Below, piece by piece: positions 173 to 18,163 of a stretch of DNA of 45,154 nt. The translations under genes and the position numbers were made by a program. The DNA is from an uncultured Erysipelotrichaceae bacterium (GTDB lineage Bacteria > Bacillota_I > Bacilli_A > RF39 > UBA660): positions 1-45,154 of the forward strand of contig CADBKG010000011.1 of assembly GCA_902795215.1 (NCBI GenBank), written 5' to 3'. The notes below the pieces were generated by a model. The model was not told the DNA's origin. It searched no databases and worked only from the letters and a program-made list of their open reading frames with translations. How positions within the stretch are numbered: position 1 is the first letter of the stretch; every line of letters starts with the position of its first letter.

Positions 173-1117
173 ATGAATAATATAAGAGTTGTTTTTATGG
201 GAACACCCTTATTTGCAACAAACGTTTTAAAAGAGTTAATTAACAATACTAATGTTGTACTTGTAGTTAGTCAAAAAGATAGTTTAGTTGGTAGAAAAAA
301 AGAACTAACACCTTCACCAGTTAAAAAACTTGCAATAGAAAACGATATACCAGTATTTACTCCTGATAAAATAAGAGAAGACTTTGAAATAGTAAGAAAA
401 ATGAAACCAGATTTAATAGTGACATGCGCATATGGTCAGATTCTCCCTGAGGAGTTATTAAATATTCCAAGCATTGCATCAATAAATGTACATGCTTCAC
501 TTTTACCAAAATATCGAGGTGGTGCACCTATACAAAGATCTATTATGAATGGTGATAAAGAAACAGGAATTACTATTATGTACATGGATAAAGGTATGGA
601 CACAGGAGATATAATATCTAGTGAATCTATAAAAATAGAAAATGATGATAACTTAGAAACTCTATCAGATAAATTAAGTATTCTTGGTAGTAAATTACTA
701 ATCGAAACTTTACCAAGTATAATAGATGGTACAAACAAAAGAATAAAGCAAGATAATGATAGTGCAACAATTGCACCTATAATATCTAAAGAAGATGAAT
801 ATATAGATTTTAATGATACTACCATTAATGTATATAATAAAATACGAGCGCTTAATCCAAACCCTGGCGCATATTTTAAAATTAATAATGAAATAATGAA
901 AGTATATGAAGCTAGAATTGGTGAAAATAGAGCAATGCCATCTGATATATCAAATATTTATAAAGATGGAATTGGTATAGGAACAAAAGATGGAGAAATA
1001 ATAATAACAAAAATAAAACCAGCAGGGAAAAAGATAATGAATGCAAGAGATTATTTAAATGGAATAAAAAAAGAAGAATTATTAAGGAGTAAAATCAATG
1101 AAAGGTATATTGGATAA
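173..1117 (+). CDS. fmt: Methionyl-tRNA formyltransferase
   Basis: This enzyme formylates initiator Met-tRNA using 10-formyl-tetrahydrofolate, in the cytoplasm. The N-terminal transferase domain begins with the typical RVVFMGTPLFA segment. It carries the signature NVHASLLPKYRGGAPIQ (about residues 106-122), including the HxSLLPKxRG catalytic region, and GDxxTGIT/MDxGMDTG motifs after it. A C-terminal Fmt-C-like domain follows from about residue 200. The length of 314 residues fits the family. I chose ATG at 173 because GAAAGAG lies 8 nt upstream; an upstream GTG at 164 would overlap that site. The 3' end overlaps the next gene by 20 nt, so the two are probably co-transcribed. Confidence 0.95.
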   Translation: MNNIRVVFMGTPLFATNVLKELINNTNVVLVVSQKDSLVGRKKELTPSPVKKLAIENDIPVFTPDKIREDFEIVRKMKPDLIVTCAYGQILPEELLNIPSIASINVHASLLPKYRGGAPIQRSIMNGDKETGITIMYMDKGMDTGDIISSESIKIENDDNLETLSDKLSILGSKLLIETLPSIIDGTNKRIKQDNDSATIAPIISKEDEYIDFNDTTINVYNKIRALNPNPGAYFKINNEIMKVYEARIGENRAMPSDISNIYKDGIGIGTKDGEIIITKIKPAGKKIMNARDYLNGIKKEELLRSKINERYIG

Positions 1118-1715
1118 ATATTTAGAACTTAGAAAAACTAAAAAGGGAAGAGAAATTATTAAACTTATAATCTATCTAGCCTTTATATTTATATTTATAC
1201 TTCTTGTATTAATAACAGGTGCATATAAAAAAGAAAGAATTATCTATTCAAAAGAAAGCGAAAGTGTAGAATCAAAAATAGAAGTAACATATCAAGATAA
1301 ACAAAAAAAATTATATGAAGGTAAATATAATTTTGTTTATAACATAAGTGGAGCAATCACTATAAAGTACAATGGTACATATGATAATGGTACAATTAAT
1401 GGATTTAAAGAAGATTCTACAGGTATAATAAAATACAAAATATCTGATGGGAATGTTTATAGTATAAAAATGGATAATGAGGAGCCATATAATAATCTTT
1501 ATGATGGTTTAGATACTTCTTTATTTGATCTTAAAGCATTATTTGATAATCTAAATACTAAAAGTGCGACTATAAATGAAGAAGATAATAAAAGAAGTTA
1601 TGATTATAAAGATGTAAATGGTTATGATATTACAGTTGAGTTTGATGATAACTATATTAATAATATTATAATTAAAAATGATAGTTTAGAGTATAATTTT
1701 ACTTTTACTTATTAA
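1098..1715 (+). CDS. Membrane-anchored extracytoplasmic protein of unknown function
   Basis: A 205-residue protein I do not recognise. A basic N-terminus (KxxELRKTKKGREIIK) is followed by one strong hydrophobic segment (about residues 22-42). The rest is a polar, Asp/Asn/Tyr-rich domain with beta-like repeats such as IKYNGTYDNGTINGF. The pattern suggests an uncleaved signal anchor with an outside domain. AAGGAGT 8 nt before the ATG supports this start. The gene overlaps the end of fmt by 20 nt and abuts the convergent ZIP gene with no spacer. Confidence 0.75.
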   Translation: MKGILDKYLELRKTKKGREIIKLIIYLAFIFIFILLVLITGAYKKERIIYSKESESVESKIEVTYQDKQKKLYEGKYNFVYNISGAITIKYNGTYDNGTINGFKEDSTGIIKYKISDGNVYSIKMDNEEPYNNLYDGLDTSLFDLKALFDNLNTKSATINEEDNKRSYDYKDVNGYDITVEFDDNYINNIIIKNDSLEYNFTFTY

Positions 1716-2927: not shown

Positions 2928-2951
2928 CATTTTTTTAATGTTAATTTTTTG

Positions 2952-2980
2952 TTTACAAATCTTTTAAAAAGTGTTAGAAT
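2952..2980 (+). promoter_or_regulatory. Promoter of the two-sigma-factor operon
   Basis: TTTACA (2952-2957), 17-nt spacer, TAGAAT (2975-2980). A G-rich ribosome binding site follows at about 2996-3003. Nearly the same architecture (TTTACA-17-TAGTAT) precedes the third sigma gene at 13371. Confidence 0.75.
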
Positions 2981-3011
2981 AAAAGCCAATTTAAAAGGGG
3001 GGGATATTGCT

Positions 3012-4859
3012 ATGCCAAATTTAAACGAAAAAATTGCGTCTTCCTTTGATATGCAAGAGAATCAGACAAGAGAATATACAGCAATATCTAAATATTTTGA
3101 AAAAGAAATAGATTATAATAATATTAAAAAACTTTTAAAAGAATTTGAAGATTTAGAAAAGTATCTGAAGATTAATAAGCTATCTCCAAGTGCTGAAGAT
3201 ATAAGAAATCTAATTAAGAATTCTCCTAATTTTAATAAGTCGATTAATATAATTTATGATAAATATAAAGCTGATATTGAAGATGGTAATACACAAATAT
3301 TTGGTAACACTCTATCTCTTATCATGGATATATATTGTGGAAAAGATGGTAATTTAGATAATCTTGATAATCTTGATATTAGTTATAGCGAAAAAGATAG
3401 TTTACTAGACTCTTATTTTAAAGAAATGGCTGGTTATAGATTATTAACAAAAGAAGAAGTAGTTGAGTTATTTAAGCGATTAGAGGCAGGAGATGAGACT
3501 GCTAGGGATATCTTAATTAAACATAATCTTAGATTAGTCGTAAGTTTTGCTAAGAAAAAGGTTGGACTAGGTCTTGATTTAGTAGATTTAATACAAGAAG
3601 GTACTATTGGACTTATGAGGGGAATTGAAAAATTTGATTATACTAAAGGATATAATCTTTCCACATACGCTTCTTATTGGATTAGACAAGCAATAGATAG
3701 AGCAATAATTGAAACTGGACAGACAATAAGGATACCTACAAACAAGTATGTTGATAGTATTACATTTAAAAAGATGAAACAACAATTTGAAGAAGAAATA
3801 GGAAGAACAATATCTGAAAAAGAGCTTGCTAAAATGCTTGGAGAAAAAGAAGATTATGTAAAAGAATTATTAAGTTTTCCTGAGGCAGGAGTTAGTCTTA
3901 ACCAAAAAGTTTCAGACGATTCTGATGACGAGTTGTTATATTTTATCAAATCAGAAATTAATGATATAGATGAAGAAACAAATAATGACTTTTTAGAAGA
4001 AGCAATAATTGAAACTTTAGAAACATTAGATAAAAAAGAGAGAAAAGTTATAATTTATAGATTTGGTTTATTTGGTGCACCATATCATACATTAGAAGAA
4101 ATTGCCCAAGAATTTGGTGTTACAAGAGAAAGAATTAGACAAATTGAAGCAAAAGCAATAAGAAAGTTACGTCATCCAATAAGAGCTAATAGTTTAAGAG
4201 ATTTTTGGAGAGACCCTTCATTAACGACTTTTACATATGAAAAAGCTATTAAAGAAAATGAAAAAAAGATTCCTAAAGAAAAAAAACCAACTATTGAAGA
4301 AATAGAAATGAATAAGATGTACAGTTTTTTAGAGTACTTTATTAATCTTGGATATAAAGAAAATCATATACTAAGTGTTATAAATAATCTAAGCGAAAAC
4401 GAATTAGATATACTTAAAAAAAGGTTTGGAGAGGACTTAAAAACGCCTAGAATTTATGGCCAAATGAGTGAAAATGTCTTTAATAACTATTATTATATTC
4501 TTCTACCAAAAATTAAAGAATACCTAGATAGAGAAAAACATAATTATATTGCTGCTATCGCTGGTGAAGAACTATCAAAATATGTAAACAAAGAAGAATA
4601 TCCAGAACTATATAACTCATTAACAGAATTTACTAAATCAGAATTGTATAAAAAATTAATTTATTACTTTAGTAATATGGAATTACTCGTATTTGCACTT
4701 AGTAATGGTTTAATAGATGGTAATATATACAATTATTATGTAATTTCACAAATTTTAAATGATTCAGTAGATCATATAATAAATATTAAAACATCTATAG
4801 ACAATAAAATAGAAGAAAATAAAAAAAATAATCCTAAAAATAAAGGAAGGAGGATATAA
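3012..4859 (+). CDS. RpoD-like sigma factor with extra N- and C-terminal modules (sigma A here)
   Basis: A primary-type sigma70 paralogue of 615 residues. After a ~130-residue N-terminal extension come region 1.2/2 ([61 protein letters not shown]), region 3, and region 4 with the [24 protein letters not shown]. About 200 more residues follow, including [20 protein letters not shown], which resembles the start of a second, degenerate region 4. Its C-terminal module matches the one in the sigma gene at 13427. I start at ATG 3012, 8 nt after a GGGGGG-type site; the longer frame from 2949 would begin inside the promoter. It is co-transcribed with the next gene. The housekeeping sigma factor is probably elsewhere. 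Confidence 0.9.
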
Positions 4860-4860
4860 A

Positions 4861-6645
4861 ATGACAGATTTAAATTTTAAAAAAACAAAAGTAGAAGAAT
4901 TATATGAAATATTAAAAAGCAAAGTTTTATTAACATATTCAAATTATTATAGTGTAATAGATAAAGATGAATATGAAAGAGTTGTTTTTGATGTTATAAG
5001 CAAATTACAAGAAGATAATAAACCCAAAAAAGAAGAAAGATTATTTACAACTTTAAACAAGTATTTATCAGATTCTTTAGAAAAGGTATTATCAAATGAT
5101 GAAACTGCTTATAATTATATAACTAATACTCTTGAAAATTATAAATTTAAGAATATTATGACATTTTTTAATAAAATGAGTTCGTTATTTCAAAAAAACG
5201 GGGTGATGCTAGATTTATCAACAATAGAAAAGTTGCTTGCTAACAACGAAAAAATAAATAAATACATTACTAAGTTTGTTGAAAATAATAAAACTTTAAT
5301 TACTTCAGATAGGCTTGATGATATTTATCCTGATATTATTTTAAATCAATTTGTATATACCTACTGTGATAAAAATAATATTACTATCAAAGCTGAAGAA
5401 GATGATAAAAAAGTTTATAAAGAGTTAGAAAAACTTGATGATACCGTTAGTGTATATCTTCAGGAAATAGGAAGTATTCCACTTCTTACAAGAGAGGAAG
5501 AAAGAAATCTTGCTCATAAAATACTAGCTGGTGATGAAAATGCCAAAAAAACATTTGCTGAACATAACTTAAAACTCGTTGTTGCTATTGCTAAAAAATA
5601 TATGAATAAAGGTTTAGATTTTGCAGATTTAATATCAGAAGGTAATATTGGATTAATGAAGGCGGTTGAAAAATTTGACGTTACAAAAGGATATAAATTT
5701 TCAACGTATGCAACATGGTGGATTAAGCAAAGTATAAAAAGAGCAGTCGCTGATAAATCAAAAACCATCAGATTGCCAGTATATATGTTTGACGGTATCC
5801 AAACTTATAAACTAGCAGAAATTAATTTCATGAATAAATATCAAAGAGAACCAACAATTGGAGAATTATCAATTGAAATGCATGAGCCTATAGAAAAAAT
5901 TAAATTATGGCAAAAATATGCTAGACAGGAGCCAGTTAGTCTTCAAGCAAAGGTTAGTCCAGATGATGATTCTGAGCTTGGACAATTTATTCCTTCTGAC
6001 GAGGAAGGCCCTGAGGAACAATCAATAAATGAATCAATGGCTAGAGATGTACGTAATATGCTTGAAAATTCTAATTTAAATGATAGAGAAAGATATGTAA
6101 TTGAGGAAAGATTTGGTTTAAACGACGGAATTCCAAAAACACTTCAAGTAATTGGTGATAATTGTGGTGTTACAAGAGAAAGAATAAGACAAGTAGAAGA
6201 AAAAGCATTAAGAAAATTAAGAAATCCTAATAATTCAAAATCGGTATCCGATTATATATATAATAGTGATAATACTCAAAAAAATATGTATATGCAAAAA
6301 TTTAATATCAAAAGTGAAGAAGATAAAAAAAATAATAATCATGTAGAACAATATGTTAAATTTACTAGGGATGAATACTTTAGATCTAATCTAACACTTA
6401 TTTTAAATAGTCCAAAAGGTGAAAAATTAACGGAAGAATTTTCTAAAAAAGAAATAGTAATTTTAATCTTATATTATGGATATGTTGACAATATTATCTG
6501 TACTATAGATGAAATTGCAAACATCTTACATATAGAAGTAGATGAAGTAGAAGAAATTCTTGATTCTACTAAAGATAGATATGAAGAGTTTGCAAATATA
6601 TTTAGAGGCAGTATAGAAACAACTTCAAAGCCTAAAACAGTGTAA
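4861..6645 (+). CDS. RpoD-like sigma factor with extra modules (sigma B here)
   Basis: A 594-residue sigma70 protein. A ~195-residue N-terminal extension precedes [19 protein letters not shown] (region 1.2). Regions 2 ([54 protein letters not shown]), 3 and 4 ([34 protein letters not shown]) follow, all close to consensus. The last ~130 residues contain [19 protein letters not shown] and [20 protein letters not shown], which look like a second degenerate region 4. This type-2 module recurs as a separate protein at 14863-15249. AAGGAGG in the end of sigma A serves as its ribosome binding site. The operon ends at the terminator 6644-6669. Confidence 0.9.
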
Positions 6646-6669
6646 AAGATGTGTATAACACATCTTTTT
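6644..6669 (+). terminator. Intrinsic terminator after the sigma A/B operon
   Basis: AAAAGATGTGT, loop ATA, ACACATCTTTT, ending in T5. The stem begins within the stop codon of sigma B. Confidence 0.85.
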
Positions 6670-6770: not shown

Positions 6771-7364
6771 ATGAAATATATACCAAATTCATACGATTAT
6801 AAAAAATTAGAAGAGTTAAATATCAGTAATGAGGAATTTTTAAGTCTTCAAGTAAAATATAGAGAAGGTTTTGAAAACTATTTAAAAGACATAATAGATT
6901 TTAATGAAATAAATAGTTATATTTTAATGAAAGGAGAACTTCCAAAAGTAGATGACGAAGATAGAAACTTCTATCATAAGTATTCTACGCTTGGTAGTAA
7001 TTACATCTTTTTAAGAAGTAATGTTCATATTGAGCGATTAACACCAGAAGAAATAAATATCTTAAAGTTAAATCCAACAAGTGAGTTTTATCAAAAAACA
7101 TATGACAGAGTATTATTTGAAACAGAAGAAGATATAAATATAATGATAGGTTCAGCAATACCAGAACATGTAGTAAAAGGAAGAAGCATAATAATAGAGT
7201 TCTCACATGATATGAAAAAAGAGACTTCAGAGCAGATGATGAAAGCAGATGAAATAAGTAAATATTTAAAAGATTTGTTTGAAAAATATGGAGAAGCAAG
7301 AAATATACCAATATCATTTTTAGAATATAAGGCAATACCAGATAGTTTTTTAGGAGGTGAATAG
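6771..7364 (+). CDS. Partner protein 1 of the SLH/papain-like module, unknown function
   Basis: A 197-residue soluble protein I do not recognise. It has no signal peptide or membrane segment. Visible features are an acidic helical N-terminal part (SYDYKKLEELN, KYREGFENYLKDIIDFNEINSYILMKGELP), a middle part with HIERLTPEEINILKLNP, a hydrophobic strand IMIGSAIP, GRSIIIEFSHDM, and the ending NIPISFLEYKAIPDSF. Homologues follow at 8984 and 11207; the first two copies differ at fewer than 20 of 197 positions by eye. GGAGG precedes the ATG. Each copy lies directly upstream of one SLH/papain-like gene. A dedicated chaperone, export partner or inhibitor is my inference only. Confidence 0.85.
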   Translation: MKYIPNSYDYKKLEELNISNEEFLSLQVKYREGFENYLKDIIDFNEINSYILMKGELPKVDDEDRNFYHKYSTLGSNYIFLRSNVHIERLTPEEINILKLNPTSEFYQKTYDRVLFETEEDINIMIGSAIPEHVVKGRSIIIEFSHDMKKETSEQMMKADEISKYLKDLFEKYGEARNIPISFLEYKAIPDSFLGGE

Positions 7365-7367
7365 AGT

Positions 7368-7472
7368 ATGCCAGCAAGTATAGAAAAGGTTAGTAGTGGG
7401 GGAAGTGCTACTACAAATAAAAATGCTACAACAAATAATACAAATACAAAGACAGAAGTAAAAACAGAAACT
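7368..7472 (+). repeat. 105-bp direct repeat, copy 1
   Basis: Codes for the first 35 residues of SLH copy 1. It matches 9581-9685 at all but one base (codon 2, CCA against CCG), while sequence further downstream has diverged more. This suggests recent duplication or gene conversion. Confidence 0.9.
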
Positions 7473-8984
7473 AAAAAAGGTTACATGGTAGGTGATGATA
7501 CTGGATTTAATCCTAATGGTGATATGACACGTGCCCAAATGGTTCAAATCCTATATGCGATGGAAGGTAAACCAAGTGGTGCAAAAGCAAACTTTAGTGA
7601 CGTAAAAAGTGGAGAATGGTATGCAGATGCGGTAGCTTGGGCTCAAAGTAATGGAATAGTCGCTGGACATACAGATGGAACGTTTAGACCTAATGATAAA
7701 ATCACAAACGAACAAATGGCCGCTATCATGAAAAAATACGCTGAATTTAAAGGACAAGACACATCTATTAAAGGAGATGAAGTATGGGCAATTGACAAAC
7801 TAGATAGAAGTAATTATTCAAGAGATGCTCTTGCTTGGGCAAATGAAAATCATATGTTCAAAGTTGATTCAATTTTAGATTTGAAACCAAAGGATACTGC
7901 AAAAAGAGAAGATATTGCATTAATGCTTAAACAATATGATCGTTTTTATAATTCAAGCTCGTATAAGGAAAACTTAGATAACTATCGTACACTTTCTAAA
8001 AAAATTAATACACCAAAGATGGAAGATATATTGAATTCTACAGCTACTAGATATTCAACATTTTCGGATTTGTTTAATAGCGATAAATATGGCGGAAATC
8101 AAGCGGATCCATATAATTATGTAAATGAATATAATACTTTAGATGAATTACTTTCTGATAACAGTATTAATGGTCAAAAAGCTCAAGCTATATATAATAT
8201 AACCAAAAAATATTTTGACGATGATATAACGCTCGGTGATTTAAAATTATTAACTTATACATATAATGCAAATGGTTGTGCATATATGGGCGTGGCAGAT
8301 GCCTTTGCACTTCAAGTATCAAATCTTTCTAATGGTGAAGAAGTATTTAAAAAAACAATGGGATATGATCTTTATGCAACCAATGGGACAACAAAATCAT
8401 GTAATATTGATACAGTAGCGTATGAAATATTTCTTCATCAAGCTACTACGTCGATTGATAATCCTACCCCAAGATCTGTAGCAAATTCGGACACTCTTAC
8501 TTTAGCTATGAAGCAAAATGGAGAATCAGCAAGAGAATTCTTTGAGAAAAAAGGTATTGATTTTAATTATAATTGGGGCTCTGTTATGGCAGAAAATACA
8601 GAAGATAGTTATCGACAGATGATGGCAGAGGTTTATGAAAAAAGGTCAGACTTAGGTGATGGAGTTTATATTCTTAATGGAACAAATTTTGATATGAGAA
8701 GATTTAATAAAAGTACTTATAATAATACTGATTTATTAAGTGATAAAGCTCTTACCAATTCTGTTTCGACAAATAATACTTACAGTAATGTTGATGGCCA
8801 TGCAATGATGGTGTCAGGAATATGTGAAGAAGGCTTTATAGTATCTTCTTGGGGCGAAAAATTCTTAATACCTTTTGATGAAACATTTAATAATTTGCAG
8901 AAAGATTCAGCATCTAATCAAAAGCCTAATATGGAACTAATTGGGTATACTTTTGGTTTTAATAATGTAGGAGGAAATAAATAA
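7368..8984 (+). CDS. SLH-domain protein with C-terminal papain-like peptidase domain, copy 1
   Basis: 538 residues. The first 36 are a low-complexity Ser/Thr/Asn linker and no Sec signal peptide is present. SLH-like repeats span about residues 37-190: GFNPNGDMTRAQMVQILYAM, then WYADAVAWAQSNGIVAGHTD plus GTFRPNDKITNEQMAAIM, then a weaker third. After a spacer comes a domain with NGCAYMGVADAFAL (Cys304), GHAMMVSG (His478) and SSWGEKF (493-499). This resembles the Cys, His and NSWG segments of clan CA peptidases, but with Ser at the usual Asn position. SLH domains normally bind secondary wall polymers outside the cell, so the missing signal peptide is odd. AGGAGGTGA at the end of the partner gene serves as its ribosome binding site. 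Confidence 0.85.
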   Translation: MPASIEKVSSGGSATTNKNATTNNTNTKTEVKTETKKGYMVGDDTGFNPNGDMTRAQMVQILYAMEGKPSGAKANFSDVKSGEWYADAVAWAQSNGIVAGHTDGTFRPNDKITNEQMAAIMKKYAEFKGQDTSIKGDEVWAIDKLDRSNYSRDALAWANENHMFKVDSILDLKPKDTAKREDIALMLKQYDRFYNSSSYKENLDNYRTLSKKINTPKMEDILNSTATRYSTFSDLFNSDKYGGNQADPYNYVNEYNTLDELLSDNSINGQKAQAIYNITKKYFDDDITLGDLKLLTYTYNANGCAYMGVADAFALQVSNLSNGEEVFKKTMGYDLYATNGTTKSCNIDTVAYEIFLHQATTSIDNPTPRSVANSDTLTLAMKQNGESAREFFEKKGIDFNYNWGSVMAENTEDSYRQMMAEVYEKRSDLGDGVYILNGTNFDMRRFNKSTYNNTDLLSDKALTNSVSTNNTYSNVDGHAMMVSGICEEGFIVSSWGEKFLIPFDETFNNLQKDSASNQKPNMELIGYTFGFNNVGGNK

Positions 8985-9577
8985 TGAAATATGTGCCAGA
9001 TTCTTATGATTATAAAAAGTTAGAAGAAATAGGATTAACTAATGAAGAGTTTTTAAATCTTCAAATAAAATATAGAGAAGGATTTGAAAGCTATTTAAAA
9101 GATATAATAGATTTTAATGAAATAAATAGTTATATATTAATGAAAGGGGAACTACCAAAGGTAGATGACGAAGATAGAAACTTCTATCATAAGTATTCTA
9201 CGCTAGGTAGTAATTATATCTTTTTAAGAAGCAATATTCATATAGAAAGATTAACACCAGAAGAAATAAATATCTTAAAGTTAAATCCAACAAGTGAGTT
9301 CTATCAAAATACATATGATAGGGTGTTGTTTGAAACAGAAGAAGATGTAAATATAATGATAGGATCAGCAATACCAGCTAATGCAGTAAAAGGAAGAAGC
9401 ATAATAATAGAGTTCTCACATGATATGAAAAAAGAGACTTCAGAGCAGATGATGAAAGCAGATGAAATAAGCAAATATTTAAAAGATTTATTTGAAAAAT
9501 ATGGAGAAGCAAGAAATATACCAATATCATTTTTAGAATATAAAGCTATACCAGATTACTTTTTAAAGGAGGAATAA
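8984..9577 (+). CDS. Partner protein 2 of the SLH/papain-like module
   Basis: A 197-residue close paralogue of the protein at 6771. Most differences lie in the first 36 residues (for example EEIGLTNEEFLNLQI), with scattered ones later and EHV replaced by ANA near residue 132. It starts with a TAATG overlap on the stop of SLH copy 1, with AGGAGG just upstream, so translation is probably coupled. Function unknown. The near identity to partner 1 across its middle and C-terminal parts indicates recent duplication of the whole two-gene module. Confidence 0.85.
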   Translation: MKYVPDSYDYKKLEEIGLTNEEFLNLQIKYREGFESYLKDIIDFNEINSYILMKGELPKVDDEDRNFYHKYSTLGSNYIFLRSNIHIERLTPEEINILKLNPTSEFYQNTYDRVLFETEEDVNIMIGSAIPANAVKGRSIIIEFSHDMKKETSEQMMKADEISKYLKDLFEKYGEARNIPISFLEYKAIPDYFLKEE

Positions 9578-9580
9578 GAT

Positions 9581-9685
9581 ATGCCGGCAAGTATAGAAAA
9601 GGTTAGTAGTGGGGGAAGTGCTACTACAAATAAAAATGCTACAACAAATAATACAAATACAAAGACAGAAGTAAAAACAGAAACT
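9581..9685 (+). repeat. 105-bp direct repeat, copy 2
   Basis: Second copy of 7368-7472, with one mismatch. It ends exactly where the 19-nt insertion of this copy begins. Confidence 0.9.
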
Positions 9686-9702
9686 ATCCCAATATTATGT
9701 CC

Positions 9703-9710
9703 AAAAAAAA
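9703..9710 (+). other. A8 homopolymer at the frame break
   Basis: Eight consecutive A between CC and GG. The upstream frame reads CCA AAA AAA AGG and the downstream frame needs AAA AAA GGA. A change to seven A restores the full gene, which makes this a plausible slippage or phase-variation tract. Confidence 0.65.
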
Positions 9711-9716
9711 GGATAT

Positions 9717-11207
9717 ATGGTAGGTGATGGTACTGGTTTTAATCCAGATGGAGATATGACACGTGCCCAAATGGTGCAAATTCTATATGCAATGGAAGGA
9801 AAGCCAAGTGGTGCAAAAGCAAACTTTAGTGATGTAAAGAGCGGAGAATGGTATTCTGACGCAGTAGCATGGGCCCAAAGTAATGGAATAGTCGCTGGAC
9901 ATACAGATGGAACATTTAGACCAAATGATAAAATAACCAATGAACAAATGGCTGCTATAATGAAAAAGTATGCTGAATTTAAAGGAAAAGATACTAGCAT
10001 TACAAACGATGAAGTATGGGCAATTGATAAACTAGATAGAAGCGAATATTCGAGAGATGCTCTTACATGGGCAAATCAACAACATATGTTTAATGTACAG
10101 TCAATTTTAGATTTAAAGCCAAAAGATACTGCTTCTAGACAAGTAATGGCAGATATGCTAAGAAGATATGATCAAGTATATAATACAGAGGTATATATGC
10201 CTGTAAATAAACAATATCAAGAAGTAGAAAAAAAATATAATACTGAAAGATTGGAAACAAGGATTAATTCAGTAAGCACAATTTATTCTTCCTTTGATGA
10301 TATCTTTAATGATAAACAATATGGTGGTGCACAAAATGATCCGGCTAGAATACTTAATTATAAATCATATGATGATATGATGGCTGACACAAGTGTAAAA
10401 GGGCAAAAAGCAAAAATTTTGTACGATTTAACGAAGCAATATTTTCCTGATGCATCATTTGAACAAACTCAAGATCTTGCAGAAGCATATAATCAATGCG
10501 GATGTGCATATATGGCAGATGCGGATGCATGTGCGCTTCAAATATCAAGTCTTTCAAATGGTGAAGAAGTCTTCAAAAAAACATTTGGATATGATTTATA
10601 TTCAAAGGATGATAATGGAAAATCAATCAATGTAGAATGCATTGCATATGAGCATTTCTTGTATGCGAATAAAGTACATAGAAATAAGTCTATGGATAAC
10701 ATTTTATCTAACAGTGGAGGAAAAAATGCTATTAGCACTGGTTCAACAGAAAGTAAATATTTTTATGAAAGTAAAAACATTGGATTCTATCATGAAAGCT
10801 CAGTTAGTATGGAAACAAATTCAGAGGAAGCATATCAAAAGTCATTTAATTATCTATATAAATATTCCAAAGATCACCCAAATGCAGTTTATGTACTAGA
10901 AGGTCAGGATTTTGATATGCTTAGGTTTAACACTTCCGAATATAATAACAACAATTTGCATGATGCGGCCTTAGATCATGCAACACTTTCTGGTGCAAAG
11001 TATTCTGATGTATCTTCCCATGCAATGTTTTTAACAGGCACTACAAAGGAAGGATACATAGTTTCATCTTGGGGGGATAAATATTTTGTGCCATTTGATG
11101 ATACTTTTAATAATACAGGTACGGATTTTGAAGGTAGAATAGTAAAACCAAACTTAGAAGTAATGGCAATAGACTTTGATTTTAGTAAAATAGGAGGTAT
11201 TAAATAA
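9717..11207 (+). CDS. SLH-domain protein with papain-like domain, copy 2 (main frame)
   Basis: 496 residues from the first ATG of this frame; no in-frame start exists further upstream before a stop at 9672. SLH repeats occupy about residues 1-155 (GFNPDGDMTRAQMVQILYAM, WYSDAVAWAQSNGIVAGHTD). The C-terminal domain has the same key segments as copy 1: CGCAYMADADACALQ, SHAMFLTG and SSWGDKYFVPFDD. The natural N-terminus lies in another frame (9581-9727), and ATG 9717 has only a weak AAAAGG site. Expression therefore needs slippage, frameshifting or re-initiation; otherwise this copy is disabled. The C-terminal part is more diverged from copy 1 than the SLH part, so the modules may differ in target. 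Confidence 0.8.
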   Translation: MVGDGTGFNPDGDMTRAQMVQILYAMEGKPSGAKANFSDVKSGEWYSDAVAWAQSNGIVAGHTDGTFRPNDKITNEQMAAIMKKYAEFKGKDTSITNDEVWAIDKLDRSEYSRDALTWANQQHMFNVQSILDLKPKDTASRQVMADMLRRYDQVYNTEVYMPVNKQYQEVEKKYNTERLETRINSVSTIYSSFDDIFNDKQYGGAQNDPARILNYKSYDDMMADTSVKGQKAKILYDLTKQYFPDASFEQTQDLAEAYNQCGCAYMADADACALQISSLSNGEEVFKKTFGYDLYSKDDNGKSINVECIAYEHFLYANKVHRNKSMDNILSNSGGKNAISTGSTESKYFYESKNIGFYHESSVSMETNSEEAYQKSFNYLYKYSKDHPNAVYVLEGQDFDMLRFNTSEYNNNNLHDAALDHATLSGAKYSDVSSHAMFLTGTTKEGYIVSSWGDKYFVPFDDTFNNTGTDFEGRIVKPNLEVMAIDFDFSKIGGIK

Positions 11208-11788
11208 TGTTTTATCCTGATACTCATGACTATAATAAACTAATTGATCTAGGTCTTACAAAAGATGAATTTTTAGATCTTCAAATTAAATATAAGCATG
11301 GATTTGAAGAATACTTAAAAACAATTATAGATTTTAATGAAATAAATAGTTATATTTTAATGAGTGGTAATCTTCATAAAATAGAAGATGATGATAGAAA
11401 CTTTTATAAAAAATATTCTAGTTTAGGTAGTGATTTCTTTTATTTAAGAAATAATATTCATATAGAAAGACTAGATGTGTATGAACTTGGAACATTAAAA
11501 GGCAATCCTGACAAAGAATTTTACGAAAAAACATATGAAAAAGTGCTATTTGAAACTGAAAAAGACACAAATATTTTTATAGGAACAGCCGTTCCTACTA
11601 ATGAAGTAAAAGGAAGGAGTTTAATATTTGAATTTGCACATGATATGAGAAAAGAATCCTCAGTTGAAAGATATGCAGCAAGTAATATATCAAAATATAT
11701 AAAGGATCTTTTAAATAAGTACTCAGAATCAAGAAATATACCTATATCATTTTTAGAGTATAAAGCTATTCCTGATTACTTTTTATAG
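11207..11788 (+). CDS. Partner protein 3 of the SLH/papain-like module
   Basis: 193 residues and the most diverged of the three partner proteins. It keeps the landmarks DYNKLIDLG, KYKHGFEEYLKTIIDFNEINSYIL, HIERLDVYE, VLFETEKDTNIFIGTAVP, KGRSLIFEFAHDM and RNIPISFLEYKAIPDYFL. It overlaps the stop of SLH copy 2 by TAATG with GGAGG upstream. Strict one-to-one alternation with the SLH genes through three copies argues that each partner belongs to its downstream neighbour. Function unknown. Confidence 0.85.
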   Translation: MFYPDTHDYNKLIDLGLTKDEFLDLQIKYKHGFEEYLKTIIDFNEINSYILMSGNLHKIEDDDRNFYKKYSSLGSDFFYLRNNIHIERLDVYELGTLKGNPDKEFYEKTYEKVLFETEKDTNIFIGTAVPTNEVKGRSLIFEFAHDMRKESSVERYAASNISKYIKDLLNKYSESRNIPISFLEYKAIPDYFL

Positions 11789-11796
11789 GAGATATT

Positions 11797-13350
11797 ATGG
11801 CAACAAGTATTAAAAAAGTTACCGCTGGAAGTTCAGGAAATAGTTCTTATAATACTTCTAATATATCTAATAACAATAATAATGTTGTATATGAAAGCAT
11901 GAATTTATCAAGTGATCATTACTCATTAGATAGAGATTATAATCAATTTTATGTTAATCAAAAAGGATATATGATTGGTGATGAAACTGGATTTAATGGT
12001 TCTGGTAATGTTACAAGAGCACAATTAGTTCAAGTGTTATACGCAATGGAAGGAAAGCCAAGTGGTGCAAATGCTAATTTTAAAGATGTTAATTCAAATG
12101 ATTGGTATGCAGATGCAGTAGCGTGGGCCCAAAGTAAAGGAATAGTCGCAGGGCATACAGATGGAACATTTAGGCCAAATGATGTTATAACAAGAGAGCA
12201 AATGGCTGCTGTTATGAGTCAATATGCTAGATATAAAGGCGCTAATACTAGTGCTTCTAGTTATACAGTTGAATCAATTAATAAAACAAAAGCTAATGAC
12301 TATGCAAAAAATTCTCTTGCATGGGCATATGAAAAAGGAATGTTTGATGTATCTTCCATAGAAAACTTAAATCCTGGTGGAGGTGCTTCAAGAAATGATT
12401 TAGCCCAAATGCTTACTGCTTATGATGCTAATTATAATAATAGTAGTTTCAATCAATATTATGAATATTATAAAAATCCTGAAAGTTTTGCTATAAATTC
12501 TATAAATACATCTCTTTCTGAAAAAAGGGGTTATACTGATGTTTTTAATGATACAAATTATGGTGGAGATCAAAGACAAGTATCTAAAATAATGAAAAAA
12601 TATAATAGCGAAGCTGAACTTTTAAGTGATTCAAGTGTAGATGGACAGCAGGCAAGAATAATAAATGATTTGATTAAAAGATATTATCCTAATTCAACAT
12701 ATGACCAAAGAAAATTACTTGCAGAATCTTATACCCAAAATGGATGTGCATATATGGCACTTGCAGATGGACTTGCGCTTCAAACTTCTGGATTATCAAA
12801 CGGAGAGGAAGTATTCAAAAAAGCCTTTGGTTATGATTTATATTCTGCTGATGGTAATAACAAAGTATGTAATACAGAAGCAATTGCTATGGATTTCTTC
12901 TTATATGAAAATTGTAGAAACAAAAGTATAGATAGTGTATTATCGTTAGAAACGACTGCAACTAATACGGCATCTGGTGATGTTAGAAGTTACTTAAATA
13001 GTAAGGGTATTACTACTGACTATTCATCTGCAGATTTTGGTGGAATCAGTTTGACTTCTAAAACGGAATCATTAAAAAAGCTTGCAGAATTTGAAATGAA
13101 ACATCAAGATGCTATATATATGATGGAAGGCGGAGGATATAACATGAATAGATATAACAACCAAGGAGATTTAACTAATAATACAACTAGAGCTTCCGCG
13201 CATGCAACATTTGTAACAGGGATGGATAACGATAGCTTAACTGTATCATCTTGGGGTGATAAATATGATGTTCCAATAGGGACTGATGGTTCAAGAATCT
13301 CAGTAGTAGCATATAACTTTGATTTTAGTAAAATAGGAGGTAAGAAATAG
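11797..13350 (+). CDS. SLH-domain protein with papain-like domain, copy 3
   Basis: 517 residues. The N-terminal ~50 residues are Ser/Asn/Tyr-rich, without a signal peptide and different in sequence from copies 1 and 2. SLH repeats follow (GFNGSGNVTRAQLVQVLYAM; WYADAVAWAQSKGIVAGHTD with GTFRPNDVITREQMAAVM; a third weaker repeat). The C-terminal domain retains NGCAYMALADGLALQ, AHATFVTG and SSWGDKYDVP, so the Cys, His and SSWG positions are conserved in all three copies. AGGAG precedes the ATG. The gene is last in its operon, closed by the terminator at 13345. Confidence 0.85.
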   Translation: MATSIKKVTAGSSGNSSYNTSNISNNNNNVVYESMNLSSDHYSLDRDYNQFYVNQKGYMIGDETGFNGSGNVTRAQLVQVLYAMEGKPSGANANFKDVNSNDWYADAVAWAQSKGIVAGHTDGTFRPNDVITREQMAAVMSQYARYKGANTSASSYTVESINKTKANDYAKNSLAWAYEKGMFDVSSIENLNPGGGASRNDLAQMLTAYDANYNNSSFNQYYEYYKNPESFAINSINTSLSEKRGYTDVFNDTNYGGDQRQVSKIMKKYNSEAELLSDSSVDGQQARIINDLIKRYYPNSTYDQRKLLAESYTQNGCAYMALADGLALQTSGLSNGEEVFKKAFGYDLYSADGNNKVCNTEAIAMDFFLYENCRNKSIDSVLSLETTATNTASGDVRSYLNSKGITTDYSSADFGGISLTSKTESLKKLAEFEMKHQDAIYMMEGGGYNMNRYNNQGDLTNNTTRASAHATFVTGMDNDSLTVSSWGDKYDVPIGTDGSRISVVAYNFDFSKIGGKK

Positions 13351-13369
13351 CTTTTAAAGGCTATTTTTT
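13345..13369 (+). terminator. Terminator of the SLH/protease operon
   Basis: AAATAGC, loop, GCTATTT followed by Ts. It overlaps the stop codon of SLH copy 3 and is followed at once by the promoter of the next unit. Confidence 0.75.
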
Positions 13370-13426: not shown

Positions 13427-14863
13427 GTGGGGACAAATAAAAAAAATATTAGTTTTGAAAAAGCAATTAAAGAATTTGAAAAACTGAATAATAACTATGA
13501 AAAAAACAAAGAACTAAATATTGAAGATATAAAAAAAATATTACAACATGATAAAAAACTATATTACCTAACGGATATAATTTTTAATGAAAAAAAAGAG
13601 GAAATAATAAATGGTGAAGATTTAGAAATATATAATAATTTATTTCTATATTCAACTATATATGCTTATGCAGATTTAAATAATATAGAGATTAAAGATT
13701 TGGATTTAGATGAAATTTTTGACAATATTGCTTTAGATGAAACTATTATATCAAATGATAACGTTTCCGCTTATATTAATGAAATAAGAGATTATAAACT
13801 ATTAACAAGAGAAGAAGAAGTTATGCTTTTTAAAAAATTAGAACGAGGAGATAATAAAGCTAGAAATATAATTATTAAATCAAATTTAAAATTAGTAATA
13901 TCTATTGCCAAAAAATATACCAGCAGCAGATTACCTTTTTTAGATTTGATACAAGAAGGTAATATTGGGCTTATGAAAGCAGTTGACAAGTTTGATTACC
14001 ATCGAGGAAATAAATTTTCTACCTTTGCTACATATTGGATAAGACAAACTATTACAAGGGCAATAGCTAATAAATCAAGAGAAATTAGATATCCTGTTAA
14101 TACGTTTTATATAATTAATAATATAGAACTATATATTAATGGATATTATAGTCAGTATTATGAATATCCAAGTCTAAAGCAGATAGCAAATAAATTTAAT
14201 ATAACTACAAAAAAAGCTAGTGAATATGTACTCAACATTTCCAGTACCATTAGTTATAATTTAAAAGTAGGTGAAGAACAGGATACAGAATTTGGAGACT
14301 TAATTGCGAGTAATATCAATGTAGAAGAAGAAGTTCTTTCAAAAAATATAAATAAGGATATTAATTTAGCATTAGATATCTTAAATGAAAGAGAAAGAGA
14401 CATAATAGAATTAAGATTTGGTTTAAACGGAAGAAAAAAATTAACTCTAGTAGAAACCGCAAAATTATATGGTATTACAAGGGAAAGAATTAGACAAATA
14501 GAATCTATGGCAATAAAGAAATTAAGAGGAGATAGTGCTATAAAATATTTAGAGGGTTATTACGATTTATATAAAGATGATAATGATAAAGAGAATATAT
14601 ATACTTACTTTTCGAATTTGGGTTTTACTTATAAAACCACAAGATTATTAATTAATACTTTAGATGAAAATACAAAAAAGATTTTATATAAAAAATTCAG
14701 ATTTTCAGATTATAGAAGAGAAGATATTAAACAAGAATTATCAAAAGAGGAAGAAAAAATGTTTACAAATGAAATTCTTCCAAGTATAATAGAGAAATTA
14801 GAAGAGATTCAAAATAATTATAAAAATGAATCAACAACAAAGAGAGAAAGGAAGAAAAAATAA
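13427..14863 (+). CDS. RpoD-like sigma factor with extra modules (sigma C here)
   Basis: 478 residues starting at GTG after AAAGGGGGA. A ~110-residue N-terminal extension, similar in pattern to that of sigma B, precedes VSAYINEIRDYKLLTREEE. Region 2 ([54 protein letters not shown]), region 3 and region 4 ([34 protein letters not shown]) are intact. The C-terminal ~100 residues (YFSNLGFTYKTTRLLINTLD, ENTKKILYKKFRFSDYRRED) align by eye with the C-terminal part of sigma A ([38 protein letters not shown]). It is followed by the type-2 module protein through a TAATG overlap. Confidence 0.9.
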   Translation: MGTNKKNISFEKAIKEFEKLNNNYEKNKELNIEDIKKILQHDKKLYYLTDIIFNEKKEEIINGEDLEIYNNLFLYSTIYAYADLNNIEIKDLDLDEIFDNIALDETIISNDNVSAYINEIRDYKLLTREEEVMLFKKLERGDNKARNIIIKSNLKLVISIAKKYTSSRLPFLDLIQEGNIGLMKAVDKFDYHRGNKFSTFATYWIRQTITRAIANKSREIRYPVNTFYIINNIELYINGYYSQYYEYPSLKQIANKFNITTKKASEYVLNISSTISYNLKVGEEQDTEFGDLIASNINVEEEVLSKNINKDINLALDILNERERDIIELRFGLNGRKKLTLVETAKLYGITRERIRQIESMAIKKLRGDSAIKYLEGYYDLYKDDNDKENIYTYFSNLGFTYKTTRLLINTLDENTKKILYKKFRFSDYRREDIKQELSKEEEKMFTNEILPSIIEKLEEIQNNYKNESTTKRERKKK

Positions 14864-15249
14864 TGAACGAAAATGGTCAAAGAAATATGGAAAGTGATGT
14901 AAAAATCTATTCAAGACAAAAAGAAAACGTAAAAATTTATCCAAATGAAAGTGAAAGGATTCATTTGCAATTGGAAAGTATTAAACCTGAACTAGTTACA
15001 TATTTAAAGTCATATCCATTTACCTTATTAGCAGAAGAATTTGGAACTGATGCAATTATAATTGGTCTTAGATTTGGATTTGTTGGTAACAACGAGTATT
15101 CATCTGAAGAAATTGCTATTGTTCTAGGAATAGAAGAAGAAAAAGTAAGCAATATAATTAATTCATATTTATCTTATATGAAAGATAATCTATTAAAAGA
15201 ATTTTCTAAAATTGAAAATCCAAAAAGAATTAAAAAAGAAAAAAATTAA
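14863..15249 (+). CDS. Stand-alone protein resembling the C-terminal module of sigma B
   Basis: 128 residues. There is no sigma region 2. Residues ~47-110 (LLAEEFGTDAIIIGLRFGFV, then YSSEEIAIVLGIEEEKVSNI) match in spacing the end of sigma B ([20 protein letters not shown], then [20 protein letters not shown]). Both look like a degenerate sigma region 4 helix-turn-helix. It starts by a TAATG overlap with sigma C. It could be a remnant of a second sigma gene, a DNA- or RNA-polymerase-binding accessory subunit, or an antagonist. These roles are inference; the resemblance is what I can see. Confidence 0.75.
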   Translation: MNENGQRNMESDVKIYSRQKENVKIYPNESERIHLQLESIKPELVTYLKSYPFTLLAEEFGTDAIIIGLRFGFVGNNEYSSEEIAIVLGIEEEKVSNIINSYLSYMKDNLLKEFSKIENPKRIKKEKN

Positions 15250-15309: not shown

Positions 15310-15470
15310 AATATGCGTTTAATTGATAGAAACACGCCTTTAAATGATCCATGAACTTCTATCGCTTCTATAGCATAATTAGAACATGTTGGAATAAATC
15401 TACAATTATTATGCATGTGCGTTGGTGTTTTTTGATAAAGTTTAATAAGTTTAATTAGTAATTTTTTCAT
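15255..15470 (-). CDS. yidD: Membrane protein insertion efficiency factor YidD
   Basis: 71 residues of the small YidD/UPF0161 family, which helps YidC/Oxa1-type insertion at the membrane. Diagnostic features are the amphipathic N-terminus ([14 protein letters not shown]), [19 protein letters not shown], the Lys/Arg-rich [14 protein letters not shown], and the terminal [15 protein letters not shown]. It overlaps the end of murD-murC by ATGA, so the two are co-translated. Finding it behind murein genes and not beside rnpA/yidC is unusual but not unique. Confidence 0.95.
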
Positions 15471-18163
15471 TTTGTTAATTTACTTGCAAGTTTAGTAATA
15501 TTGCCCGCTCCTTGAGTTATTATTATATCATCTTTTTTAACATTTTCTAAAAGATATTTTACTATTTCATCATAGTCTTTTATATAAAGGGCATCTTTTT
15601 TAAGTTTTTTGATTTCTTTTATTAAATCTTCTGGCCCAATATCATAAGTGTTTTGTTCTCTAGCTGCATATATATCTACTATTATTATGTTATCGTAATT
15701 GATAAGCACTTTTGCAAATTCTTTTAAGTGAGCTTTTAATCTTGAAAAAGTATGTGCTTCAAATATTATAAATGACTTATTATATTTTTTGTTTTTAATT
15801 CCATTATATGTAGCTTCTAGTTCTGTTGGGTGATGACCATAATCATCATATACACTAGCACCATTAAACTTACCTTTATATTCAAGCCTTCTAGATACAC
15901 CAAGAGGTTTTAGAAGAGCTTTTTTAATTATTTTAGAATCGATACCATATTCTTTTGCAAGAGCATATACACATAAACTATTATATACATTATGAATACC
16001 AGCGCTTTTTAAAGATAGTATATCTATCTTCTTATTGTTATGATATACATCAAAACAAGGGAAACCATCACTTGAATATGATACATCCTTAAAGTAATAA
16101 TCTGCTTTTTTATCACTTCCGATAGTTATAACTTTAGCTTTTGTATAATCTTTTAAACCATAGACTCTTTCATCATCCATGTTTAACACTAAATAACCAT
16201 CACTAGGTAGATTTGAAACATACTTTTGAAAACTTTTTTCAATATTATTTATATTTTTAAAATAATCTAAATGATCATCATCTATATTTAAAACTATTGC
16301 ACTTTTTTGCTTAAATTTTAAATAACTATCATGATATTCACAAGCTTCTATTATTAAATGCTCTGATTTACCAATGCGGTAATTACCATCAATCAGATTT
16401 AAGTTAGTACCAACTTGAATTGTAGGATCAAGCCCAGCTTCAATAAATACACTTGATAACATGCTGGTAGTAGTTGTTTTACCATGTGTTCCAGAGATAC
16501 CAATAGTATCACTAAAGTGTTTTGTTATTTCTCCTAAATAATCAGCGCGTTCCATGCATTTAATTCCAAGTTCTCTAGCTTTTATAAGTTCTTTGTTATC
16601 ATCTTTAATTGCGGCAGTATAAACAACTAAATCGATATCTTTAGTAATATTCTTTTTTAATTGTGAGTAATTTACTTTAATGCCATTTTTTTCAAGCTTT
16701 TCAGTAATACTTGATTTATTTAAATCAGAACCACTTACATTATATCCATAATTTTTAATTATTTCGGCAATACCACTCATAGATATTCCGCCTATACCAA
16801 TCATATAAACGTTTTTATAGTTTTCTATTGATTCATCTTTAAAAGAATTAACAACACTTTTAAATTCATCCCCACGTATTTCAAAGTTTTCATAACTATC
16901 CCAAGATGCACATGCTGGACTAAATAAAACTACATCTCCATAACTTGCTTTTTTGCTTGCACCAATAGTGGCTTCTTTTAAGTTTTTATAAACATCACAT
17001 TCTATTTTATTTTTAGTAGCGAACTTTTTAATTCTATCTTTTGTTTCTCCAAATGCTGATATATATTTTACATTTTTTAAATAGGGGATAAGATCATCAA
17101 ATGAGTGTCCTCTATCAAGTCCTCCAAGCATTAAAACAATTGGTTCTTTAAAAGAAACAAGAGCAGTTTTAGTAGATTCTACGTTAGTGGCTTTACTATC
17201 GTTATAATACTTAACACCATTTATTGTTTTAACATATTCTATTCTATGTTCAACACCACTAAAGCTTTTTAAAAATCTAACTATTGGTTCATTAGGTATA
17301 GCATATAATTTAACAGCGCATATCGCAGCCATTATATTTTCATAATTATGCATCCCTTTAATTTTAATATCATCAAGAGATATTACTTTTTTATTAGCAT
17401 AATATATATAATTATTTTTTATATAAGATCTTTGTTTACTATCTTTAGAAAAATATATTTTTGTGCTTTTTATATCACTTGTTAAATCAACTGATTCTTT
17501 ATTATCATAATTAATAATTGCATAATCTTTTTTAGTATGATTATTAAAGATTCTTTTTTTCATTGCTTTATAACGCTCATGAGAATCATGAAAATCAGTA
17601 TGCGCTTCAAATATATTGTTAAGTACACTTACTTCAGTTTTAAATTTATACATATCACATAATTGGTGGTCAGATATTTCAAGTACTAAATAATCTTTTT
17701 TCTTTAATTTTTTAACTAGGCCTGATAGAGGATAACCAATATTTCCACCTAGATAAACATTTTTACCTGCATTTTTTAAAAAGTTATATATTAAAGTTAC
17801 AGTAGTAGTTTTACCATTAGAACCAGTAACACCTATAATATGTACACCTTTTGGCATATAATAAAAAGCAGCTTCAACTTCATTTATAACAGGGATATTT
17901 AAGTTATTAGCTTTTACAACAGTTTTATGTGTATACTTAATACCTGGATTTTTAACAAGTATGTCAAAACTTTCATCTAAAAACTCTGTTGGATCATCGC
18001 TTTTTATAAACTTAACTCCAAGTCTTTTTAAATCATGAAGTTGTCCTTTGTCTTGATCTTTCATATCAGTTATTATAACTTTATTATTAGTAGCAAGTAG
18101 TTTTGCAGCTTCATAACCACTTCTTGCCATTCCTAGTATAAATATTTTTTTGCCCTTTATCAT
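15467..18163 (-). CDS. murD-murC: Fused MurD-MurC peptidoglycan precursor ligase
   Basis: 898 residues holding two complete Mur ligases. Residues 1-~445 are MurD (UDP-MurNAc-L-Ala:D-Glu ligase): [16 protein letters not shown], the ATP loop [11 protein letters not shown] (111-121), the LEISDHQL region, and [21 protein letters not shown]. Residues ~449-898 are MurC (UDP-MurNAc:L-Ala ligase): [20 protein letters not shown], the ATP loop [12 protein letters not shown], and FEAHTFSRL…GAGNI near the end. The two catalyse consecutive steps, MurC first, although MurD is N-terminal. The reading frame is unbroken through the joint. A GAGAGG site precedes the ATG and yidD follows by overlap. Both halves keep their motifs, so both are probably active. 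Confidence 0.93.

What the first reader, a model, noticed from the sequence alone, without database searches (positions are those of the whole stretch)
6771..13350. Three tandem partner / SLH-papain-like modules without signal peptides
Six co-oriented genes alternate strictly: a ~195-residue protein of unknown family, then a ~500-540-residue protein with SLH-like repeats and a C-terminal Cys/His/SSWG domain. Translation is coupled by TAATG overlaps between modules. The SLH repeats imply wall attachment, yet no Sec signal peptide is present. This suggests export by another route, with the small protein as chaperone or partner, or an intracellular use of SLH repeats. Repeated duplication with divergence in the protease half resembles a diversifying effector set.
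Basis: partly seen in the sequence, partly recalled or inferred. Interest (0 to 1): 0.8.

Follow-up and report, generated by a model that had tools for sequence, protein, structure and literature searches.

The report
Leaderless SLH papain-fold effectors with partners
Three back-to-back gene pairs in a small-genome gut bacterium each encode a papain-fold enzyme carrying wall-binding (SLH) repeats and a small partner; relatives of the pair travel with a type VII secretion machine, so this is probably an effector plus its inhibitor or immunity protein fitted with an unusual targeting module.

Summary
The six alternating genes are real. The second large gene (L2) is frame-displaced near its start. 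The large proteins have no Sec leader. Their C-terminal half is a papain-fold (clan CA) domain with invariant Cys and His, unnamed in Pfam or NCBIfam. The small protein (S) has no known family or fold match.

S belongs with the papain-fold domain, not with the SLH repeats. In 386 genomes of the same family, S occurs in 33, the domain in 38, both in 28 (p about 3e-29). In fetched loci 36 of 43 S genes lie within 1.5 kb of the domain; outside this window no SLH fusion was seen. Two other leaderless SLH proteins in this genome have no S.

S is tied to type VII secretion: 32 of 33 S genomes have EssC (background 202 of 386), and 16 of 37 loci carry type VII markers. This genome has a full-length EssC. 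SLH proteins are rare in the family, and no CsaB-type pyruvyltransferase was found here.

Best reading: T7SS-linked papain-fold effectors with a cytosolic inhibitor or immunity protein, whose usual N-terminus is replaced here by SLH repeats. Export route, enzyme activity and S function are inferred. New variant of a known kind.

The parts
6644..6668 (+). terminator-like hairpin before the array
   Evidence: 11-pair stem plus T run, z -3.7
6771..7364 (+). S1, 197-aa cytosolic partner, no known family
   Evidence: AF2 pLDDT 89.8
7368..8984 (+). L1, 538 aa: disordered N-terminus, SLH repeats, papain-fold domain; no Sec leader
7479..7949 (+). SLH region of L1 (two clear repeats and one degenerate)
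   Evidence: PF00395 3.8e-19
8022..8981 (+). papain-fold (clan CA) domain of L1; Cys304, His478, SSWG motif
   Evidence: AF2 pLDDT 84.3, pTM 0.88; VIA rows all papain-superfamily, best Z 9.3; Cys and His invariant in 28 of 28
8984..9577 (+). S2, 91% identical to S1; overlaps L1 stop by one base
9581..9727 (+). N-terminal fragment of L2 (48 codons), out of frame with the rest
9717..11207 (+). L2 main ORF, 496 aa: SLH plus papain-fold domain
11207..11788 (+). S3, 193 aa; overlaps L2 stop by one base
11797..13350 (+). L3, 517 aa: disordered N-terminus, SLH, papain-fold domain
13345..13366 (+). weak terminator-like hairpin after L3
   Evidence: z -2.0

Best explanation
Each module is a papain-fold cysteine-enzyme effector (L) with a small cytosolic protein (S) that belongs to the enzyme domain. 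S most likely holds the enzyme inactive in the producing cell or protects kin: an inhibitor or immunity protein, working like staphostatin with staphopain or an immunity protein with a T7SS toxin. The effector leaves without a Sec leader, most likely through the type VII secretion system encoded elsewhere in the genome. In this organism the usual N-terminal region has been replaced by an SLH repeat block that should act as a wall-binding targeting module. Three tandem copies arose by duplication, with recombination giving each a different enzyme domain. Shown here: S and the papain-fold domain are a unit across many genera; Cys and His are invariant; the fold is papain-like; co-occurrence with EssC; no Sec leader; SLH attachment seen only in this genome. 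Inferred: export by T7SS, catalytic activity, S as inhibitor or immunity protein, what SLH binds, and the target.
For: S in 33 and C domain in 38 of 386 family genomes, both in 28, p about 3e-29. 32 of 33 S genomes have EssC against 202 of 386 overall, p about 5e-9. 36 of 43 S genes within 1.5 kb of a C domain, 29 in order C-then-S, several overlapping; EssC, WXG100 or DUF4176 markers in 16 of 37 loci. S-C distance correlation r 0.79, none of 2000 permutations reached it. S genes with no C domain nearby, e.g. Coprococcus comes (L117), and tandem S (L128, L129) fit immunity genes. S has no leader or membrane helix. Papain fold. Own EssC 972.7 bits, cut-off 778.4, with a WXG100-like gene beside it. 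S absent next to the other two SLH proteins of the genome.
Against: No T7SS gene was recognised near the array, and L has no LXG or WXG100 domain by Pfam. S1 and S2 are 91% identical while their enzyme domains are 43-45% identical, which is odd for a highly specific immunity protein. The papain Asn position is Ser, Ala or Thr, so activity is not certain. The C domain is sometimes internal or repeated in very large proteins, as expected of a processing protease rather than a toxin tip. S has no informative fold match. p-values ignore phylogeny.
Confidence: 0.55

Rival explanations
1. S is an export chaperone or targeting factor for the effector, like EsaE or Lap proteins, rather than an inhibitor.
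For: Small cytosolic partner encoded beside the effector in T7SS loci; S1 and S2 stay nearly identical while enzyme domains diverge, as for a generic factor.
Against: Known Lap and Esx export factors bind the N-terminal transport domain (PMC9600955, PMC10653861), whereas S follows the C domain whatever the N-terminus is. Leaderless SLH proteins without the C domain have no S. S also occurs with no C domain nearby.
Confidence: 0.25
2. The C domain is a releasing or processing protease inside larger effectors, and the window proteins are SLH-anchored processing enzymes, not toxins.
For: C domain internal or repeated in some giant proteins; papain-like domains of polymorphic toxins can be releasing peptidases (PMC3482391).
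Against: In the window and several relatives (L086, L101, L126) the C domain is the only catalytic-looking domain and sits at the C-terminus; a dedicated partner gene is not expected for a pure processing domain.
Confidence: 0.12
3. The proteins stay in the cell or are released by lysis; the SLH repeats serve an internal role or are a recent useless acquisition.
For: No leader; no CsaB-family match; L2 is frame-displaced.
Against: Open frames, conserved catalytic residues and three kept copies; linkage of relatives to T7SS.
Confidence: 0.08

Closest known systems
T7SSb polymorphic effectors with papain-like domains (e.g. Tox-PL1; PMC3482391)
   Same: leaderless multidomain proteins linked to T7SS with a papain-like domain
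   Different: sequence family not recognised by Pfam or NCBIfam; N-terminal SLH instead of LXG or WXG; partner S of unknown family
EsaD-EsaG-EsaE pre-secretion complex of S. aureus (PMC10653861)
   Same: effector bound by a cytosolic immunity protein before T7 export
   Different: nuclease, not papain fold; EsaD has dedicated EsxBCD partners, for which no counterpart was recognised in the window
Staphopain and staphostatin (from own knowledge)
   Same: papain-fold protease with a small co-encoded cytosolic inhibitor; staphopain-staphostatin entries are among the VIA rows for the enzyme domain
   Different: staphopain is Sec-exported with a proregion; no S match to staphostatin was seen, but absence from the list proves nothing
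Wall-anchored SLH proteins (CsaB/SCWP system; PMC6030368)
   Same: SLH repeats over Pfam cut-off with TRAQ-type motifs
   Different: no Sec leader; no CsaB-family match in the genome

Membership tests
Clan CA papain-like peptidase | papain fold | tested here: met
   AF2 pLDDT 84.3; VIA best Z 9.3 (rmsd 4.2, 198 aligned), listed rows papain-superfamily; Foldseek alone gave no match under E 0.001
Clan CA papain-like peptidase | catalytic Cys then His | tested here: met
   invariant in 28 of 28
Clan CA papain-like peptidase | third catalytic residue Asn or Asp at the SWG motif | tested here: not met
   Ser 25, Ala 2, Thr 1; other placements of the third residue not tested
Clan CA papain-like peptidase | enzyme activity | not testable with these tools
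   needs assay
T7SSb LXG effector | N-terminal LXG or WXG100 domain | tested here: not met
   no such Pfam match in L1, L2, L3
T7SSb LXG effector | T7SS present in the same genome | tested here: met
   EssC 972.7 bits over the 778.4 cut-off
T7SSb LXG effector | encoded at a T7SS locus | tested here: inconclusive
   no T7SS gene recognised among the window genes examined, but relatives of the pair lie at such loci
T7SSb LXG effector | EssC-dependent export | not testable with these tools
   needs secretion assay
SLH wall-anchored protein | SLH repeats | tested here: met
   PF00395 E 3.8e-19, 3.1e-17 and 2.1e-20
SLH wall-anchored protein | Sec signal peptide | tested here: not met
   hydropathy against controls
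SLH wall-anchored protein | CsaB-type ketalpyruvyltransferase in the genome | tested here: not met
   no PF04230 match at E 1; genome 93% complete
Immunity or inhibitor protein | adjacent to and co-diverging with the effector domain | tested here: met
   36 of 43 adjacent; r 0.79
Immunity or inhibitor protein | neutralises the effector | not testable with these tools
   needs binding and protection assays

The most novel reading that the evidence does not exclude
SLH repeats are used as a prey- or surface-recognition module on type VII exported effectors: the producer lacks a CsaB-family enzyme to make the usual SLH ligand on its own wall, so the leaderless SLH enzymes (these three plus an NlpC/P60 and a C39-like one elsewhere in the genome) dock on the pyruvylated wall polymers of competing Bacillota.
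Probability: 0.13. Interest if true: 0.8.

Novelty: new variant of a known kind. Interest (0 to 1): 0.6.

Why it matters
It defines a pair (papain-fold domain plus partner S) that the searched family libraries do not name, found in about 26 genera of small-genome gut Bacilli and in some Clostridia, and ties it statistically to type VII secretion. Leaderless SLH proteins would extend the range of targeting modules seen on such effectors and make it testable whether SLH can guide a secreted enzyme to foreign walls.

Tried and rejected
S as a partner of SLH: rejected, since S is absent at the genome's other SLH genes and SLH is absent from the other C-domain N-termini scanned. Contamination: unlikely, because SLH is fused in frame to a C domain typical of the family, next to S. 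Phage origin of SLH: the hits are unannotated fecal scaffolds, and the one read in detail encodes leader-bearing SLH proteins that look bacterial; scans of viral contigs found no relatives. S in phages or plasmids: none. The Cys/His domain of the 633-aa C5 protein is not detectably the same family as the C domain. PADLOC: no match for S or L. In one search the row 'L2fs_N' was translated one base out of frame and is not used.

Full report
What is there. Six genes run in one direction from 6771 to 13350: S1, L1, S2, L2, S3, L3. They lie between a strong terminator-like hairpin and a weaker one. S proteins are 193-197 aa and match no Pfam, NCBIfam or PADLOC family. L proteins carry SLH repeats (PF00395, E down to 2e-20) behind a short low-complexity start, then a C-terminal half without any family. 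None has a Sec leader: hydropathy of the first 60 residues is far below the Sec-type controls. The second L gene is displaced in frame after its first 35 residues, which match L1 exactly.

The partner belongs to the papain-fold domain. S relatives occur in 33 of 386 genomes of the family, the C-terminal domain in 38 and both in 28, Fisher p about 3e-29. In 37 non-redundant loci, 36 of 43 S genes lie within 1.5 kb of the domain on the same strand, 29 with the enzyme first, and several overlap. Distances in the two families correlate, r 0.79 over 28 pairs, with no permutation reaching it. The large proteins of relatives have other N-termini: SLH was found only in the two window proteins among 26 scanned. 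Two other leaderless SLH proteins of this genome, one with NlpC/P60 and one with a C39-like Cys/His domain, have no S nearby, and S occurs nowhere else in the genome.

Type VII link. EssC over the curated cut-off is in this genome (972.7 bits) beside a WXG100-like gene and a small gene that may be YukD-like. 32 of 33 S genomes have EssC against 202 of 386 overall, p about 5e-9. EssC, WXG100 or DUF4176 markers lie at 16 of 37 S loci. These counts ignore phylogeny, and no T7SS gene was recognised near the array itself, so export of the window proteins by T7SS is an inference.

The enzyme domain. AlphaFold2 with 23 sequences gave pLDDT 84.3 and pTM 0.88. Foldseek alone gave no strong match, but the second look listed papain-superfamily chains throughout, best Z 9.3. 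Cys and His are invariant in 28 of 28. The papain Asn position is Ser in 25, Ala in 2 and Thr in 1, so activity should be assayed, not assumed.

S as inhibitor or chaperone. Order, overlap, S genes without a neighbouring C domain (one in Coprococcus comes beside an IS66-type element), tandem S copies and the lack of leader or membrane helix fit an immunity or inhibitor protein. Against a narrow specificity, S1 and S2 are 91% identical while their enzyme domains are 43-45% identical; dS of 0.35 for S, 0.66 for SLH and 1.10 for the enzyme domain point to recombination between the halves. Known T7 export factors bind the N-terminal transport domain (PMC9600955, PMC10653861), unlike what the distribution of S suggests.

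SLH here. SLH is rare in this family, 6 of 386 genomes. The others read in detail include leader-bearing SLH proteins and one high-GC contig that may be a contaminant. No PF04230 pyruvyltransferase was found in this genome, while pyruvylated SCWP is the described SLH ligand (PMC6030368). The genome is only 93% complete. The idea that SLH serves to dock on other cells is therefore open, not shown.

Novelty. The pair was not found in the family libraries searched. No paper in the held library holds both 'S-layer homology' and 'polymorphic toxin'; papers holding SLH together with type VII secretion and signal peptides were three reviews. I rate it a new variant of a known kind.

Noticed in passing
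window 2949-4859, 4861-6645, 13427-14863, 14863-15249: Three RpoD-like sigma factors and a small sigma region-4 protein flank the array in a 1.34 Mb genome; the best defence-library match is MzaA but below the NCBIfam cut-off.
   Followed up: partly
window 9581-9727: L2 frame displaced beside a run of A with an insert relative to L1; phase variation, slippage, decay or assembly error.
   Followed up: partly
L008:8517-10418 and 10437-11612: Two leaderless SLH proteins (6 SLH plus C39-like; 3 SLH plus NlpC/P60) between a sortase/LPXTG-like pair and rpoB.
   Followed up: partly
G070:C32: A 6816-aa open frame with five matches to the papain-fold domain.
   Followed up: no
L117:8965-9627: S with no C domain nearby in Coprococcus comes, a cultured species, beside an IS66-like element.
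   Followed up: no
window 15467-18163 (-): 898-aa protein with two Mur ligase modules, MurD-like then MurC-like.
   Followed up: no
window 36091-38865: MmeI-type restriction-modification enzyme.
   Followed up: no
window 1098-1715: Weak match to the endospore appendage family Enas.
   Followed up: no
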